This document shows, one piece after another, positions 342-5,501 of a stretch of DNA of 64,000 bases. Numbering within the stretch: the first letter of the stretch is position 1; each line of letters begins with the position of its first letter. Made by a program: the position numbers and the translations under genes. The stretch is from Maricaulis sp. (GTDB lineage Bacteria > Pseudomonadota > Alphaproteobacteria > Caulobacterales > Maricaulaceae), in assembly GCF_017643475.1 (NCBI RefSeq), contig NZ_JAEPNI010000001.1:744001-808000 (forward strand), written 5' to 3'. Below the pieces are notes generated by a model. The model was given only the letters and a program-made list of their open reading frames with translations. It made no database searches and was not told where the DNA came from.

Positions 342-854
342 ATGAATATGCGTTTTGTCCTCGCCAGTGCCCTCGCTGCAGTCTCTGTTTTCGGCGCGGC
401 CGATGCAGCCGAGGCCCAGTCCCGCAACCGGGTCACGGTCCAGCAGGACGGCTATCAAAACGAGATCGCTGGTCGCCAGGGTGGTTATGGCCAACGCATG
501 GTGATCCGCCAGCGCGGTGGCCGCCAGCACGTCACCATCATCCAGGACGGCGCGCGCAATGGCACGACGGTGGGACAGAGTGGCTATTACAATCAGTCGC
601 ATGTCGACCAGTATGGCCGGGACAATGATACCGTCATCGGACAGGATGGTGTCGACAATTACAGCTACAGCCGCCAGACCGGTCGCCGCAATATCGTCGG
701 TGTGTCCCAGATGGGTCGCAACAACACTGCCGTGACGGACCAGTTCGGCAACAACAACGGTGCCGGCATCATCCAGGTCGGCGATGGCCACAACGCCACT
801 ATTCGTCAGTCCGGCAATGGCAATGTAACGCTGGTTATCCAGGGTGATCACTAG
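342..854 (+). CDS. Curlin-repeat secreted protein (CsgA/CsgB-like amyloid subunit)
   Basis: The 170-residue protein begins with a Sec signal peptide (about residues 1-26, ending DAAEAQ). The rest is a chain of short Gln/Asn/Gly-rich units of the curlin type, such as VQQDGYQN, IIQDGARN, VGQSGYYN, IGQDGVDN, ITQ-like SRQTGRRN, VSQMGRNN and IRQSGNGN. Each unit is expected to form one strand-loop-strand rung of a beta-solenoid that polymerises on the cell surface. Curli subunits are normally exported through CsgG with CsgE/F; none of these genes is visible here, and this is the only curlin gene in the window. Major subunit versus nucleator cannot be decided from the sequence. The gene stands alone, facing away from the minus-strand block that follows. 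Confidence 0.85.
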   Translation: MNMRFVLASALAAVSVFGAADAAEAQSRNRVTVQQDGYQNEIAGRQGGYGQRMVIRQRGGRQHVTIIQDGARNGTTVGQSGYYNQSHVDQYGRDNDTVIGQDGVDNYSYSRQTGRRNIVGVSQMGRNNTAVTDQFGNNNGAGIIQVGDGHNATIRQSGNGNVTLVIQGDH

Positions 855-947: not shown

Positions 948-1526
948 TCAGCGGCGGTATTTCAAAAGACCCGCATCCCGGAGATGGTCGTCGATCATCT
1001 CGCGCTGGTCCACGCTGAGTGGTGTCAGGCGAGGATAGACCGGCTGGGCCCGGTCATTGCTCCAGGCCTGGTCCCAGTGATCCGTGCCAGCGATAAAGGC
1101 GCGCAGCATGGCCTCGCCGCCGGTCTCGAATGCCCCGATCAGACAGGTGTCGACATAGGATTGCGGAACGGGATGATCAGCATCGGCGGTTTCGTGTTCC
1201 GTGTTAACGACGATCCAGAACTTGCCAGCGGGCAGGTCAGCCGCGTCCAGGCTTGAGCGCTCGACCGGCGTCCACACATATCCGCGCTCGCGATGACGCA
1301 TGTCCGGATTGATCTCCACAGGTACCAGCACTGCGTCCAGCGTCGAGGTCACATCCTCAACCAGCCCCAGATAGGTCGCGGCCTCGTCCCGGTAACGCAC
1401 CGACCAGGCCCGCCGCCAGCCCGGAAGTGCAACCTTCAGTGCGGGTCCGGTCATGTCGGAGTAGGTCTCGCGGCTATGCCGGCTGAGAATACTGCCATAG
1501 CCAATCATGTAGTCCCTGGCGGTCAT
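948..1526 (-). CDS. Gamma-glutamylcyclotransferase-like protein
   Basis: The 192-residue protein opens with MTARDYMIGYGSILS. The YGS[NI]L motif near the N-terminus is the signature of the gamma-glutamylcyclotransferase (GGCT/AIG2-like) fold, where it binds the gamma-glutamyl moiety. A conserved-looking ERGYVWTPVE segment and an acidic middle part fit that fold. The substrate cannot be read from the sequence. Homologues cleave gamma-glutamyl amino acids, gamma-glutamylamines or glutathione. It is probably transcribed alone, because a GC-rich hairpin separates it from the flotillin operon. Confidence 0.6.
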   Translation of the reverse strand: MTARDYMIGYGSILSRHSRETYSDMTGPALKVALPGWRRAWSVRYRDEAATYLGLVEDVTSTLDAVLVPVEINPDMRHRERGYVWTPVERSSLDAADLPAGKFWIVVNTEHETADADHPVPQSYVDTCLIGAFETGGEAMLRAFIAGTDHWDQAWSNDRAQPVYPRLTPLSVDQREMIDDHLRDAGLLKYRR

Positions 1527-1595: not shown

Positions 1596-3359
1596 CTAGC
1601 CTTCCGCGTCGGTGACCTCGGCGACTTCGCCATTGACCGCACCGTTCAGCGCGTTCTCCAGCGAGGCCGGGTCGCCGGCCTTCAGGCCGATCTCCGACAG
1701 CATGGCGTCCAGCAGCGGGGCCTGGGCGCGATAGCGCAGGGCCGAGCTGACGACCTGGTCGGCCAGGCCACCTTCGCCACCAGCAGCACCATTGACCGGG
1801 CCGCCATTGGCGCCACCGCCCAGACCATCGACGTGCAGGATCTTGATGCCATCGATATTCTCGATCGGCTTCACGCTCTGGGCGATGATCTCCGGCAGGC
1901 TTTCCATCAGCTGCAGCTTGACCTGCATGGCGATTTGCTCCGGCGACAGGATGTTGGCCGCTTCATTGACCGCGCGCTTACCTTCAGCTTCGACCGCATA
2001 GACCCGCTCTTGGGCGTCTGCACGCATCTTCTCGGCCTCGGCCTCGCCTTCCGCAGCGATGCGGATCTTCTCGGCGTCGGCATTGGCCGCGACGCGGACC
2101 GCTTCAGCGCGGTCGGTTGCAGCCTGCTTTTCGGCCTCAGCGGCAACAGTGACGGCGATGGCTTCCATCTCGGCAGCCTTGGCGGCGTCGATCAGTTCGA
2201 TGCGCTTGTCACGCTCGGCGACCTCAGCCTGGCGGGCTGTGATGACTTCCTCAGCGGCCTTTGCAGCCAGGGCGCGAGCCTTGTCGGCCTCGGCTTCAGC
2301 CTCGGACTTGTCGCGGGATTTCTCGGCCACGACAATATCGCGTTCCTGTTCAGCCAACTGTACCTGCTTGGCCTTTTCGACCGCTGCGGACTCCAGCGTT
2401 TGCTCTTTCAGGATTTCCTGCTCGCGAACTTCCTTGTCCATGGCGATCTGACGCTCGGCGACGATCTTGTTGGACTCGATGTCCGCCTCGCGGGTGCGCT
2501 GGCTGGCGGTAATCTTGGCGATCTCCGCTTCACGTTCACGCATCGCCTGTTCCGCTGCAATCTGAGCGGCTTGTTCGGCAGAACGGGTCTGGACCTCGCG
2601 CTGTTGCTCAAGGCGGGCATATTCCTGGTCACGCGAGATCTGCAGGCTTTCCTGTTCGGCTTCCAGGTTCTTGCGGCGGATCAGGACTTCGGTTTCCTGT
2701 TCGATATCGTTGCGCTTCTTGCGGCGCTCCTCGATTTCCTGGGTCAGCTTGGTCAGACCTTCGGCGTCAAAGGCGTTGTCCGGGTTGAAATAGTCCTTAT
2801 TGGTCTGGTCGAGACCCGTCAGCGAGACGGATTCCAGCTCGAGACCGTTTTTCAGGATGTCCTCGGACACGGCCGCCTGCACTTTCTGGACGAAGTTCAC
2901 ACGTTGCTCGTGCAATTCCTCCATGGCCATTTCCGCAGCCACGGCACGCAGGGCATCTACGAACTTACCTTCGACCAGGGCTTTCAGCGCTTCCGGGTCC
3001 ATGGTCCGCTTGCCCAAGGTTTGGGCGGCATTCGCGATGGACTCGGTCGTCGGCTGAACGCGGACAAAGAATTCGGCCTGAACGTCGACACGCATGCGGT
3101 CCTTGGTAATCAGGGCCTGTTCATTGGCGCGCAGGACTTCCAGGCGCAGCGTGTTCATATTGACCGGAATGGTTTCGTGCAGCACCGGCATGATCAGTGC
3201 GCCGCCATTCATTATTACCTTCTGACCGCCAAAACCGGTCCGGACGAAGGAAATCTCTTTTGAGGCTCGCTTATACAATCCGGCTACGAAGCCGAAGATT
3301 GCGAAGAAGGCTACAAAGCCTACGGCCGTGTACAAGACGAGTGTCATCATATCTGGCAT
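1596..3359 (-). CDS. Flotillin / YqiK-type SPFH-domain membrane protein
   Basis: The 587-residue protein has one N-terminal membrane segment (about 5-27). An SPFH domain follows (about 40-210, with IPVNMNTLRLEV and a DALRAVAAEMAMEELHEQRVNFVQ region). A very long Glu/Ala-rich coiled coil runs from about 215 to 470 (AEAEADKARALAAKAAEE pattern), and a Gly-rich low-complexity stretch lies near the C-terminus. This is the standard architecture of bacterial flotillins, which assemble into inner-membrane scaffolds. It is the last gene of a four-gene operon, 40 bases after the YqiJ-like gene. The YqiJ/YqiK and FloT/YuaF pairings in other bacteria support joint action in membrane-domain organisation or envelope stress. 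The name yqiK is plausible but paralogues cannot be excluded. Confidence 0.9.
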   Translation of the reverse strand: MPDMMTLVLYTAVGFVAFFAIFGFVAGLYKRASKEISFVRTGFGGQKVIMNGGALIMPVLHETIPVNMNTLRLEVLRANEQALITKDRMRVDVQAEFFVRVQPTTESIANAAQTLGKRTMDPEALKALVEGKFVDALRAVAAEMAMEELHEQRVNFVQKVQAAVSEDILKNGLELESVSLTGLDQTNKDYFNPDNAFDAEGLTKLTQEIEERRKKRNDIEQETEVLIRRKNLEAEQESLQISRDQEYARLEQQREVQTRSAEQAAQIAAEQAMREREAEIAKITASQRTREADIESNKIVAERQIAMDKEVREQEILKEQTLESAAVEKAKQVQLAEQERDIVVAEKSRDKSEAEAEADKARALAAKAAEEVITARQAEVAERDKRIELIDAAKAAEMEAIAVTVAAEAEKQAATDRAEAVRVAANADAEKIRIAAEGEAEAEKMRADAQERVYAVEAEGKRAVNEAANILSPEQIAMQVKLQLMESLPEIIAQSVKPIENIDGIKILHVDGLGGGANGGPVNGAAGGEGGLADQVVSSALRYRAQAPLLDAMLSEIGLKAGDPASLENALNGAVNGEVAEVTDAEG

Positions 3360-3399: not shown

Positions 3400-4098
3400 T
3401 CACGACTTGCGTGACAGGATTTCGTGGGTATTGCGGATCACGCGATAGACGCTGCCGTTTTGTGCCACGACGATGACTTCCTCGCCGGCGCTGAAACTCT
3501 CGCCATCCTCATCAGGCTCCACGAGCACCCAATGGGTCAGGCCATGCAGGTCTTTCAGCTTGGCTTCAGCGGGCATGCCGCGTTCTGCCTTGCCGCGGAT
3601 GACGGTGGCGACCTTGCCGATAAAGCGTTCGGTTGAAACCGCTTCCGTCTCTTCCTTGGGCATCACTGCGCCGAAGGCCTTGCCGCCATATCGCATGGAC
3701 GGAATGGCGATCAGGGTCGCAGGTATGCTGGCCATCCAGCCCGGCGGGATAAGACCGGTTGCGCCATAGACAGCGCTCTGGATCGTCACACCGGCCAGAC
3801 CAAACACCGCCAGGAAGACAATGATCAGGATCAGGGCAGGCGCCTTGCCGAAGCTCAGCCAGCTCATCAGATAGGTGAGCGGGCCAACGCTCTCGAGACC
3901 GCTGATGTCCAGGTCGACATCAGCATCGATATCCGCATCCAGATCCGGCAGGTCGAAATCGGGGAGAATCCCGTCCAACAGGCCGGAAAGGGCAGCGCCG
4001 AACACCATGCTCAGGCCTTCAAGCGCTGCGATGATGGTCAGGATGACCAGGGCGATGATAAAGGGGCTCGCCTGGGCGCTCCCCAGAATGTCCATCAT
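3400..4098 (-). CDS. YqiJ-like / NfeD-like OB-fold membrane protein
   Basis: The 232-residue protein has an N-terminal membrane segment and an Asp-rich soluble linker (LPDLDADIDADVDLDIS, about 50-66). Two further membrane helices lie around 85-140. A C-terminal OB-fold-like domain (about 150-225) includes IGKVATVIRGKAERGMPAEAK and GEEVIVVAQNGSVYRVI. That layout matches YqiJ, the usual partner of YqiK flotillins, and functionally resembles NfeD proteins. Its ATG overlaps the PspA stop codon (ATGA at 4095-4098), so translation is probably coupled. The expected role is helping flotillin assemble in the membrane; the sequence alone does not prove this. Confidence 0.75.
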   Translation of the reverse strand: MMDILGSAQASPFIIALVILTIIAALEGLSMVFGAALSGLLDGILPDFDLPDLDADIDADVDLDISGLESVGPLTYLMSWLSFGKAPALILIIVFLAVFGLAGVTIQSAVYGATGLIPPGWMASIPATLIAIPSMRYGGKAFGAVMPKEETEAVSTERFIGKVATVIRGKAERGMPAEAKLKDLHGLTHWVLVEPDEDGESFSAGEEVIVVAQNGSVYRVIRNTHEILSRKS

Positions 4099-4784
4099 TT
4101 TACGTTCTCATCCGTTTGACCGGCTTTCAAAGCTGCCAGTCGTTCCTTGATCCGGTTCTCGCGGCTCATCTTTTCCAGTTCTGCCAGCTTGGCGGCGTCA
4201 CCACGTGAACTGCCACCGGAGCCCGGCAGACCGGAGCTTTCGCGCATCACCCGGTCAAAGGCGCGTTCGGCCTTGGAGACCTTGCGCTCTGCGCCGGAGG
4301 AGGCGACCGGTTCGCCCGCCTCGTTGAGGCTGGACTGTTCGGCACGGCTTTCCTTGAAAGCGGCGAGTTCCTCGTCCATTTCGCGGCGACGGGCCTGCAG
4401 GGCCTCGACATAGCTTTCCAGCTCTGCCTCTTCGGCGTCTGCATCGCTGACGGCCGCTTCCAGCACCGGGATCTGGCTTTCCAGGTCCATCTGGCGGGAA
4501 ATGGCTGCCTCGGCGAGATCGTCACGACCTTCCTTGACCGCCATCTCGATCTGGTCACCCAGGCTCTCGTGTTTGGCGTTGGCGTCCATCAGCCGACGTG
4601 AGGCGAGGTGTTTGTTTGCCAGCACCTTGCCGAGCTCGTCACGGACCTCGTCAATGGCGCCCTCGACTTCGCGAATGGCCTCTTTCATAACCAGTTCCGG
4701 GCTGGCGTTCTCGACCGCATCGACGATCGAATTCACCCCGCCGGACACCAGGCGTTTCACCCGGGATACAAGCTGTTCTGCCAT
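4095..4784 (-). CDS. PspA/IM30 family protein
   Basis: The 229-residue protein is almost wholly alpha-helical and charged, typical of PspA/Vipp1. An amphipathic N-terminus (MAEQLVSRVKRLVSGGVNSIVDAVE) precedes a long coiled-coil core containing PELVMKEAIREVEGAIDEVR and EALQARRREMDEEL. PspA proteins bind stressed inner membranes and polymerise into an ESCRT-III-like coat. Here the partner is not PspBC/PspF but a flotillin, a YqiJ-like protein and a predicted DNA-binding protein. The start follows the upstream stop directly and has a GGGAGAG ribosome-binding site inside the preceding gene, so the two are translationally coupled. Confidence 0.85.
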   Translation of the reverse strand: MAEQLVSRVKRLVSGGVNSIVDAVENASPELVMKEAIREVEGAIDEVRDELGKVLANKHLASRRLMDANAKHESLGDQIEMAVKEGRDDLAEAAISRQMDLESQIPVLEAAVSDADAEEAELESYVEALQARRREMDEELAAFKESRAEQSSLNEAGEPVASSGAERKVSKAERAFDRVMRESSGLPGSGGSSRGDAAKLAELEKMSRENRIKERLAALKAGQTDENVK

Positions 4785-5297
4785 CTAAGTCTCTCCCTCT
4801 TGCGACTTCGAGAGCCGGATCAGTTCCGACAACTCGAGGATGGGTTGCAGGCGGTCCTGGACGAGTTGTCCGTCATAGGTTCGCCCCTGTTTTGTCAGGC
4901 CCAGATCGAGGATCTCCTCGATCAGGGCGAAGGTCTGTTCGGCAACATCGGCCTCGAGCGCTTCAAGGTCGTTTGCCGGGTCATCTGTCTGCGCCGGTCC
5001 CTGCTGCAGGTTTGCAACCAGTTCGGGCAGTCGCTCATAGAGCTTGCCAAGGAAGTCTGATCGCATGCGGCAGTCACGTTGCCGGTTGATCACCTCTCTG
5101 TGGGCCGGTTGAAACCGTCTGGAGACTTGTTCAACCCGGCTGGCATAGTCAGTCGCCCCTTCCGCGTCGCGTCGCGCATTTGCGAGCAGGGCGCGTAGTT
5201 TCTCGCTCGGCGTCGTCGCGCCCTCCGCCTTGTATTGCGCAAGAAAGGCGGCATCAGCGTCGGTTATCCGTACACTCAGTGGAATGCGTCTCGGCAT
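4785..5297 (-). CDS. Predicted ribbon-helix-helix protein, first gene of the PspA-flotillin operon
   Basis: I place the start at 5297 because GAGGA sits 7 bases upstream of that ATG. The open frame extends to 5339, but the added residues would lie across the repeats described nearby. The 170-residue product begins MPRRIPLSVRI, a short basic beta-strand. Two helices follow (about 12-24 and 28-46, with TTPSEKLRALL), which is the layout of an Arc/MetJ/CopG ribbon-helix-helix DNA-binding domain. The rest (about 50-170) is helical and acidic, with no family I recognise; it could be a sensor or a contact surface for PspA. The stop codon abuts the pspA start. I infer that it is the operon's autoregulator. 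The fold is read by eye and could be wrong. Confidence 0.55.
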   Translation of the reverse strand: MPRRIPLSVRITDADAAFLAQYKAEGATTPSEKLRALLANARRDAEGATDYASRVEQVSRRFQPAHREVINRQRDCRMRSDFLGKLYERLPELVANLQQGPAQTDDPANDLEALEADVAEQTFALIEEILDLGLTKQGRTYDGQLVQDRLQPILELSELIRLSKSQEGET

Positions 5298-5322
5298 GAC
5301 CAAATCCTCTATTCGCACGTAG

Positions 5323-5363
5323 TATGCAAATGTATGCATATGTGTTCATAGTGGGATTGTAAA
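5323..5363 (-). promoter_or_regulatory. Putative operon promoter with tandem 10-bp repeats
   Basis: On the plus strand two adjacent 10-mers, TATGCAAATG (5323-5332) and TATGCATATG (5333-5342), differ at one base; a weaker third copy may follow to 5352. Read on the minus strand, TTTACA (5363-5358) and TATGCA (5340-5335) are 17 bases apart and form a plausible -35/-10 pair. The repeats therefore overlap the -10 element and end 26 bases before the ATG of the RHH gene. Ribbon-helix-helix repressors commonly bind such tandem repeats. Confidence 0.45.
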
Positions 5364-5442: not shown

Positions 5443-5477
5443 ATAAAAATAGGCGGCAGCTCCGGGGAGCTGCCGCC
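5443..5477 (-). terminator. Rho-independent terminator of abgT
   Basis: Perfect 12-bp stem (GGCGGCAGCTCC / GGAGCTGCCGCC) with a 2-base loop, followed on the minus strand by TATTTTTAT. It lies 25 bases beyond the abgT stop codon. Confidence 0.9.
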
Positions 5478-5501
5478 TGATCTAGGGATTGTTCGGCTGG
5501 T

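What the first reader, a model, noticed from the sequence alone, without database searches (positions are those of the whole stretch)
4785..5363. RHH-type gene and operator-like repeats control a PspA-flotillin operon
The first gene of the PspA/YqiJ/flotillin operon encodes a predicted ribbon-helix-helix protein of about 170 residues with an unknown helical extension. Two near-identical adjacent 10-mers (TATGCAAATG, TATGCATATG) overlap the -10 of a plausible promoter 26 bases before its start. Known PspA systems are controlled by PspF/PspBC, LiaRS or sigma factors. A dedicated RHH repressor that might sense membrane stress through its extension, perhaps by contacting PspA, would be a new control circuit.
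Basis: partly seen in the sequence, partly recalled or inferred. Interest (0 to 1): 0.75.

Follow-up and report, generated by a model that had tools for sequence, protein, structure and literature searches.

The report
RHH repressor-like gene heads PspA-flotillin operon
A gene for a small DNA-binding protein is the first gene of a membrane-stress (PspA-YqiJ-flotillin) operon in scattered proteobacteria, mostly with short DNA boxes one helical turn apart just before it, so the operon most likely carries its own switch, a control arrangement that we did not find described for this kind of operon in the papers we could search.

Summary
The 170-aa first gene (4785-5297, minus) has an N-terminal ribbon-helix-helix (RHH) domain: no Pfam RHH model reports it, but profile-profile comparison with RHH_1 domains gives 92% probability (HTH_3: 0.3%; 0 of 300 column shuffles reach its score). 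About 120 residues of unknown, predicted helical sequence follow. Homologues: 17 genomes, 12 families. pspA is the next gene in 17 of 17; YqiJ and flotillin follow in 16 (one contig ends). Boxes near the palindrome TGTATACA lie exactly 10 bp apart in 15 of 30 close pairs (7 more at 20 bp); 6 of 6 RHH-less pspA upstream regions have none. In the window's genome the paired site occurs only at this operon; in some others it also occurs elsewhere. Best explanation: a self-encoded RHH autoregulator, probably repressor, of a patchily distributed Psp-flotillin module. Binding, repression, signal and any contact with PspA are inferred. RHH genes are reported in another PspA operon class, so this is a new variant.

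The parts
4785..5297 (-). RHH regulator gene, 170 aa: RHH domain at residues 1-45, helical extension of unknown family at about 50-167
   Evidence: ORF; alignment; RHH profile test; conservation
5321..5328 (-). operator box TGCATACT (1 mismatch to TGNATACA)
   Evidence: its first 7 bases end the 17-mer
5331..5338 (-). operator box TGCATACA (exact)
5341..5348 (-). weaker third box TGAACACA (1 mismatch), in register at 10 bp
5335..5363 (-). weak promoter-like TTTACA (5363-5358), N17, TATGCA (5340-5335) overlapping the boxes; same hexamer position and spacing in G002 and G010
   Evidence: not found by the stricter scan
4095..4784 (-). pspA homologue (PspA_IM30), start codon abuts the RHH stop
3400..4098 (-). 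YqiJ-type membrane protein (YqiJ_N + YqiJ_OB)
1596..3359 (-). flotillin (Band_7 + Flot)
5451..5478 (-). intrinsic-terminator-like site behind the preceding abgT, likely separating the operon from upstream transcription

Best explanation
The gene encodes a ribbon-helix-helix transcription factor that serves its own operon. It binds, as an array of dimers, the 8-bp near-palindromic boxes (consensus about TGTATACA, mostly 10 bp apart, hence on one face of the helix) at its own promoter, and so keeps the four-gene RHH-pspA-yqiJ-flotillin operon low, with negative autoregulation. The helical C-terminal extension would help oligomerisation and/or receive the inducing signal, releasing the operon under envelope stress. 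Shown by sequence: RHH domain, operon linkage, conserved phased boxes, the paired site found only here in the window's genome. Inferred: binding, repression (from box position and from autoregulation being usual for RHH proteins, recalled), and signal input through the extension.
For: RHH domain: hhalign of 17 N-termini vs 28 RHH_1 domains, probability 92.0, score 30.1 over 46 columns; 28 HTH_3 domains 0.34%; best of 300 column shuffles 18.4. S8 and R10, predicted to face outward on the strand between hydrophobic 5/7/9/11, and A27, S31, K33, R35 are identical in 16 of 16 members, the near-identical G002 left out. Linkage: pspA next in 17 of 17 homologue loci, YqiJ and flotillin in 16 of 17. 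In the 385-genome class sample the 11 genomes with a pspA at 47% identity or more are the 11 with the RHH gene. Operator: window 17-mer against 15 other upstream regions 199 vs 151.9 +/- 3.4 in shuffles, max 161; 16 exact boxes in 3,400 upstream bases vs 11 in 233,087 other bases of 15 loci; of 30 box pairs within 45 bp, 15 are exactly 10 and 7 exactly 20 bp apart; 0 boxes in 6 of 6 RHH-less pspA upstream regions. In the window genome the only two matches of the paired site (up to 1 mismatch) overlap each other at this promoter. In G242, G496 and G099 a TTGACA/TTGACG hexamer lies at or beside the boxes. RHH and PspA distances correlate, r = 0.83 over 14 loci, 0 of 2000 permutations.
Against: No RHH model of Pfam or NCBIfam reports the family, and single-sequence RHH HMM scores overlap those of shuffled decoys. 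The AF2 model is low confidence (pLDDT 46, 3-sequence alignment) and shows no strand. G392 has the gene and a good TTGACA promoter-like pair but no recognisable box. The best 17-mer match of G061, G398, G268 and G392 is reached by 5, 17, 34 and 90 of 200 shuffles. Five of 17 genomes (G398, G268, G099, G358, G392) show no paired-site match at up to 1 mismatch; of the 34 matches in the 17 genomes 13 lie at the operon and 21 elsewhere (7 of these in G269, 5 in G496), the reversed control pattern giving 10, so the site is not operon-only in every genome. The window promoter is weak. Box positions vary (-19 to -164; 34 of 40 between -19 and -72), so activation is not excluded for every member.
Confidence: 0.76

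Rival explanations
1. The RHH protein activates the operon, or switches between repression and activation (some RHH proteins do both; recalled), the boxes recruiting polymerase at weak promoters.
For: Weak consensus promoter in the window; in G754 the boxes (-124 to -104) lie just upstream of promoter-like hexamers (TTGACT at -100).
Against: In the window, G010, G242 and G496 the boxes sit in the spacer or over the second hexamer of the best promoter-like pair, and in G182 and G285 just downstream of it, repressor positions; but these promoters are consensus guesses.
Confidence: 0.13
2. The boxes are the target of a different, unlinked regulator, or the RHH protein is a wider regulator acting at other sites too.
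For: DNA binding not measured; G392 has the gene without boxes; in G269 and G496 all 7 and 5 paired-site matches lie away from the operon.
Against: Boxes absent from 6 of 6 RHH-less pspA upstream regions, restricted to this operon in the window genome, and of a design expected for RHH dimers (8-bp two-fold symmetric, phased at 10 bp; expectation recalled).
Confidence: 0.09
3. RHH antitoxin-like autoregulator of a toxin-antitoxin pair that happens to precede pspA.
For: N-terminal RHH plus C-terminal extension is a common antitoxin layout (recalled).
Against: No toxin gene between it and pspA: pspA follows directly or nearly so in 16 of 17 loci; in G544 a 331-bp gap holds only one frame of 39 codons. 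170 aa is long for an antitoxin (recalled).
Confidence: 0.02

Closest known systems
CesT/Tir (YjfI/DUF2170)-PspA operons with flotillin and YqiJ/YuaF (Ravi et al. 2024, PMC11237479, passages read)
   Same: PspA, flotillin and YqiJ-type protein in one operon; a gene for a small protein next to pspA.
   Different: The gene next to pspA here is an RHH protein, with no DUF2170 hit; the unit has four genes without the AAA+ ATPase of that operon; a conserved operator array.
Spermine-synthase type PspA operon whose final gene is in some cases an RHH factor (same paper)
   Same: An RHH transcription factor linked to pspA.
   Different: There it is the last gene of a six-to-seven-gene CesT/Tir operon (no flotillin named in the passage read); here it is the first gene of an RHH-pspA-yqiJ-flotillin unit. 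Homology of the two RHH genes was not tested.
P. aeruginosa bac operon, BacA (DUF2170) (PMC10948618, abstract and passages read)
   Same: First gene of a PspA operon suggested to control the operon negatively.
   Different: BacA has a T3SS-chaperone-like fold and a predicted sigma-54 site upstream; ours is RHH with a box array.
MetJ/Arc/CopG RHH repressors (recalled)
   Same: Beta-alpha-alpha N-terminus, short two-fold symmetric boxes in tandem, autoregulation.
   Different: I know of no member with this box (TGTATACA) at 10-bp steps; the ~120-aa extension matched no solved structure by sequence.
PspF/PspBC, LiaRS, ClgR control of psp
   Same: Dedicated control of a PspA operon.
   Different: Enhancer-binding protein with Fis-type HTH, two-component system, and Cro-like HTH respectively; none is RHH.

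Membership tests
Ribbon-helix-helix (MetJ/Arc/CopG) superfamily | N-terminal strand with alternating pattern followed by two helices | tested here: met
   Alternation at residues 5-11 with invariant S8 and R10; helices 13-24 and 30-44 in a low-confidence model, which shows no strand.
Ribbon-helix-helix (MetJ/Arc/CopG) superfamily | Profile similarity to RHH domains beyond chance | tested here: met
   hhalign probability 92%, 0 of 300 shuffles.
Ribbon-helix-helix (MetJ/Arc/CopG) superfamily | Match to a curated RHH model (Pfam, NCBIfam) | tested here: not met
   None named as RHH among the matches of 13 members; not a strict requirement for a fold superfamily.
Ribbon-helix-helix (MetJ/Arc/CopG) superfamily | Dimer with intertwined two-stranded ribbon | tested here: inconclusive
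   Monomer AF2 model, pLDDT 46.
Ribbon-helix-helix (MetJ/Arc/CopG) superfamily | Binding of tandem or inverted short operator boxes | not testable with these tools
   Boxes present and phased at 10 bp; binding not measured.
PspA / phage shock system | PspA_IM30 protein | tested here: met
   61.6 bits, cut-off 33.9.
PspA / phage shock system | PspF, PspB or PspC present | not tested
   Not among the 8 neighbouring proteins scanned; genome not searched for them.
CesT/Tir-PspA-flotillin operon class | flotillin and YqiJ/YuaF-type protein in the operon | tested here: met
   16 of 17 loci.
CesT/Tir-PspA-flotillin operon class | CesT/Tir (DUF2170) gene beside pspA | tested here: not met
   No DUF2170 hit for the first gene in 13 members.
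RHH antitoxin of a TA pair | adjacent toxin gene | tested here: not met
   Window neighbours are AbgT, PspA, YqiJ, flotillin; pspA follows in all 17 loci. The upstream neighbours of the other loci were not annotated.

The most novel reading that the evidence does not exclude
The ~120-residue helical extension is a direct sensor: it binds free PspA (or a membrane-free PspA/flotillin complex), so that recruitment of PspA to a damaged membrane changes RHH occupancy of the 10-bp box array and induces the operon. This would be a one-component analogue of the PspA-PspF loop, built from an unrelated DNA-binding fold and spread as a four-gene cassette.
Probability: 0.25. Interest if true: 0.78.

Novelty: new variant of a known kind. 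Interest (0 to 1): 0.62.

Why it matters
Psp control is known through PspF/PspBC, LiaRS and ClgR. Here a compact, patchily distributed PspA-flotillin module carries its own RHH regulator and a precisely phased box array, giving a four-gene system in which the old question of how the state of PspA is read out into transcription can be asked with one regulator and one promoter. It also puts a testable function on a protein family for which no Pfam or NCBIfam model gave a consistent match.

Tried and rejected
Pfam on the window protein and Pfam/NCBIfam on 13 members: no usable family. DUF5798 (E 0.0023, 18.5 bits, cut-off 27; 2 of 13 members) and scattered one-member matches such as DUF4484 (best E 0.00089, 1 of 13) rejected as inconsistent. 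PDB sequences with the family profile: only chance hits, best E 0.17. Plasmid records and viral contigs: no homologue at the stated sensitivities. The scan of genome contigs uses two short peptide patterns and found only the two Maricaulis relatives, so it says little on breadth. Homologue hit in G291 (E 1.5e-4, residues 65-141, inside a 1,091-aa frame) dropped as spurious, so 12 of 385 becomes 11 of 385. The genome searches score only the best few first-look candidates per genome, so absences are not exhaustive. Literature searches for PspA+flotillin+RHH, PspA+YqiJ+YqiK, flotillin+NfeD+PspA+operon+regulator, RHH+phage shock protein+repressor, PspA/YjfI/flotillin/YuaF, an RHH-operator query, flotillin+RHH+operon and RHH+TGTATACA listed no paper that I could recognise as describing this arrangement; I read passages of three papers only, and of the other listed papers (one of them, PMC8656257, holds flotillin and RHH) the listing alone. 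The statement covers only that open-access library and those terms. TnpB-likeness of the fused PspA N-terminus: recalled impression, not supported by PDB profile or PHROGs.

The box pattern was written after looking at the same upstream regions, so it is partly circular; the test uses only the window's own 17-mer, and its sum leaves out the window and its near-identical relative G002. Searches use 17 upstream regions of 200 bp; the spacing and base counts use 16 (without G002), its density comparison 17.

Full report
WHAT IS THERE. The window belongs to a Maricaulis-type genome: the nearest named records found are two Maricaulis MAGs, and the window is G000:C7:744001-808000. On the minus strand, a terminator-like site behind abgT (5478-5451) is followed by a box array, then four tightly packed genes: the 170-aa gene (5297-4785), pspA (4784-4095), yqiJ (4098-3400) and flotillin (3359-1596). 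The last three are above Pfam cut-offs; the first has no match above a cut-off.

THE PROTEIN. Thirteen homologues align from the same start, with a canonical RHH-looking N-terminus (about K-S-V-P-L-S-V-R-L-S / helix / G-A-x-T-P-S-E-K-x-R / helix). With 17 members, an N-terminal profile compared with 28 RHH_1 domains gathered by the Pfam model from other genomes gave probability 92.0%, score 30.1 over 46 columns. The same profile against 28 HTH_3 domains gave 0.34%; of 300 column shuffles none exceeded 18.4; seven C-terminal windows of the family gave 2.3% or less against RHH. Single-sequence HMM scores are weak and overlap shuffled decoys, so the case rests on the profile comparison and the residue pattern. 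S8 and R10, the two strand residues that should face DNA in an RHH fold (recalled), are identical in 16 of 16 members (G002 left out), as are A27, S31, K33, R35, S80 and E115. The extension (about 50-167) is predicted all-helical in a low-confidence model (pLDDT 46) and matched nothing convincing.

DISTRIBUTION. Homologues: 3 of 61 relatives, being 3 of the 19 genomes of the genus, its own included; 12 of 385 in the class sample, one of them dropped as spurious; 5 of 398 in the phylum sample, the window's own included and 3 outside the class; 1 of 78 in the class of G496, namely itself. Together 17 genomes of 12 family labels. In all 17 the next gene is pspA; YqiJ and flotillin follow in 16, the seventeenth contig (G441) ending behind pspA, and in G285 the contig ends within flotillin. 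In G544 (E 1.5e-12, matched over residues 1-102) the extension is strongly diverged and 331 bp, with no frame longer than 39 codons, separate it from pspA. Conversely, in the 385-genome class sample 11 genomes have a pspA at 47% identity or more and these are the 11 with the RHH gene; five more with 32-39% identity lack it and have PspA fused to another N-terminal domain. Pairwise distances of RHH and PspA correlate (r = 0.83; 14 loci; 0 of 2000 permutations), which fits joint inheritance, though relatedness of the hosts was not controlled. The module is patchy: in congener G004 abgT and the gene that follows flotillin in the window are adjacent (about 86 bp between the matches), so it has probably been gained or lost as a block; in the other operon-less congeners abgT was not matched within the 1.5 kb or less fetched beside that gene.

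THE OPERATOR. Testing the window's own 17-mer on the 200 bp upstream of 15 other homologues gave a summed best score of 199 against 151.9 +/- 3.4 for dinucleotide shuffles, largest 161. Singly, 11 of 15 are reached by at most 2 of 200 shuffles; G061 (5), G398 (17), G268 (34) and G392 (90) are not so clear. Boxes TGNATACA/TGTATNCA: 16 exact in 17 upstream regions, in 11 of the 17 (shuffles mean 0.54, max 5); with up to one mismatch 40, in 16 of 17 (shuffles 9.4, max 18); against 11 exact in 233,087 other bases of 15 loci. Spacing, which was not part of that pattern, is exactly 10 bp for 15 of 30 pairs within 45 bp and exactly 20 bp for 7. The box is close to a palindrome with A/T-rich flanks (about ATWTGTATACAWAT, 37 boxes), as expected for a two-fold symmetric dimer, and 10 bp puts successive dimers on the same face. 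Upstream of 6 RHH-less pspA genes (5 sister operons and one lone pspA) there is no box even with one mismatch. Genome-wide, the paired site (up to 1 mismatch) occurs in the window genome only at this operon (2 overlapping matches). Over the 17 genomes there are 34 matches, 13 at the operon and 21 elsewhere, against 10 for the reversed pattern; of 8 exact matches 7 are at the operon and 1 elsewhere (G269). Five genomes have none, and in G061, G754, G269, G496 and G544 all matches lie away from the operon, whose boxes there are weaker or differently arranged. So 'operon-only' is shown for the window's genome, not for the whole family.

MECHANISM. Box positions (-19 to -164 from the start codon, 34 of 40 between -19 and -72) meet promoter-like hexamers in several members (TTGACA in G242 and G099, TTGACG in G496; TTTACA-N17-TATGCA/TATGTA in the window, G002 and G010), although the window promoter fails a stricter scan. 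Together with the usual autoregulation of RHH proteins (recalled), repression is most likely. That the extension senses the state of PspA or of the membrane is a hypothesis by analogy with PspA-PspF and with BacA, for which negative control of its PspA operon is suggested from proteomics of a mutant (PMC10948618, abstract and passages). No data here bear on it.

PRIOR KNOWLEDGE. Ravi et al. 2024 (PMC11237479, passages) describe CesT/Tir-PspA operons with flotillin and YqiJ/YuaF, and in another class an RHH factor as the final gene in some cases. An RHH first gene with a box array on an RHH-PspA-YqiJ-flotillin unit was not in the passages read of that paper, nor in those of Popp et al. 2022 (PMC9239133; author name recalled), nor found through the searches listed under Tried and rejected. 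Their supplements and web application were not read, so the neighbourhood may be listed there. Verdict: new variant of a known kind.

Noticed in passing
L171-L175 (G244, G393, G097, G321, G417): Sister PspA-YqiJ-flotillin operons in 5 of 385 class genomes lack the RHH gene; their PspA is fused to an N-terminal domain of about 165 aa with no convincing match in Pfam, PHROGs or PDB sequences. It reminded me of the N-terminal part of TnpB (recalled, unsupported).
   Followed up: partly
G000:C6:37796-38209: A second PspA-family gene in the window's genome, away from this operon; 8 of 19 genomes of the genus have a PspA-family gene, 3 of them this operon.
   Followed up: no
window 342-854: Protein with five curlin-repeat stretches on the plus strand beyond the operon.
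   Followed up: no
L184 (G004): Site without the operon: abgT and the homologue of window 948-1526 are adjacent (about 86 bp) in a congener, which fits block gain or loss.
   Followed up: yes
L049 6345-7015 (G268): The pspA match is split between two frames at codon 52/53, suggesting a frame break or an assembly error.
   Followed up: no
L176 (G019): PspA 35-36% identical to the window's, with no RHH, YqiJ or flotillin match in the 14-kb stretch fetched, in another genus of the family.
   Followed up: partly
G269:C1:128846, C1:392702, C1:418917, C9:140468, C19:14339: Paired-site matches away from the operon (7 matches at 5 places), possibly a wider regulon or a related regulator in this genome.
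   Followed up: no
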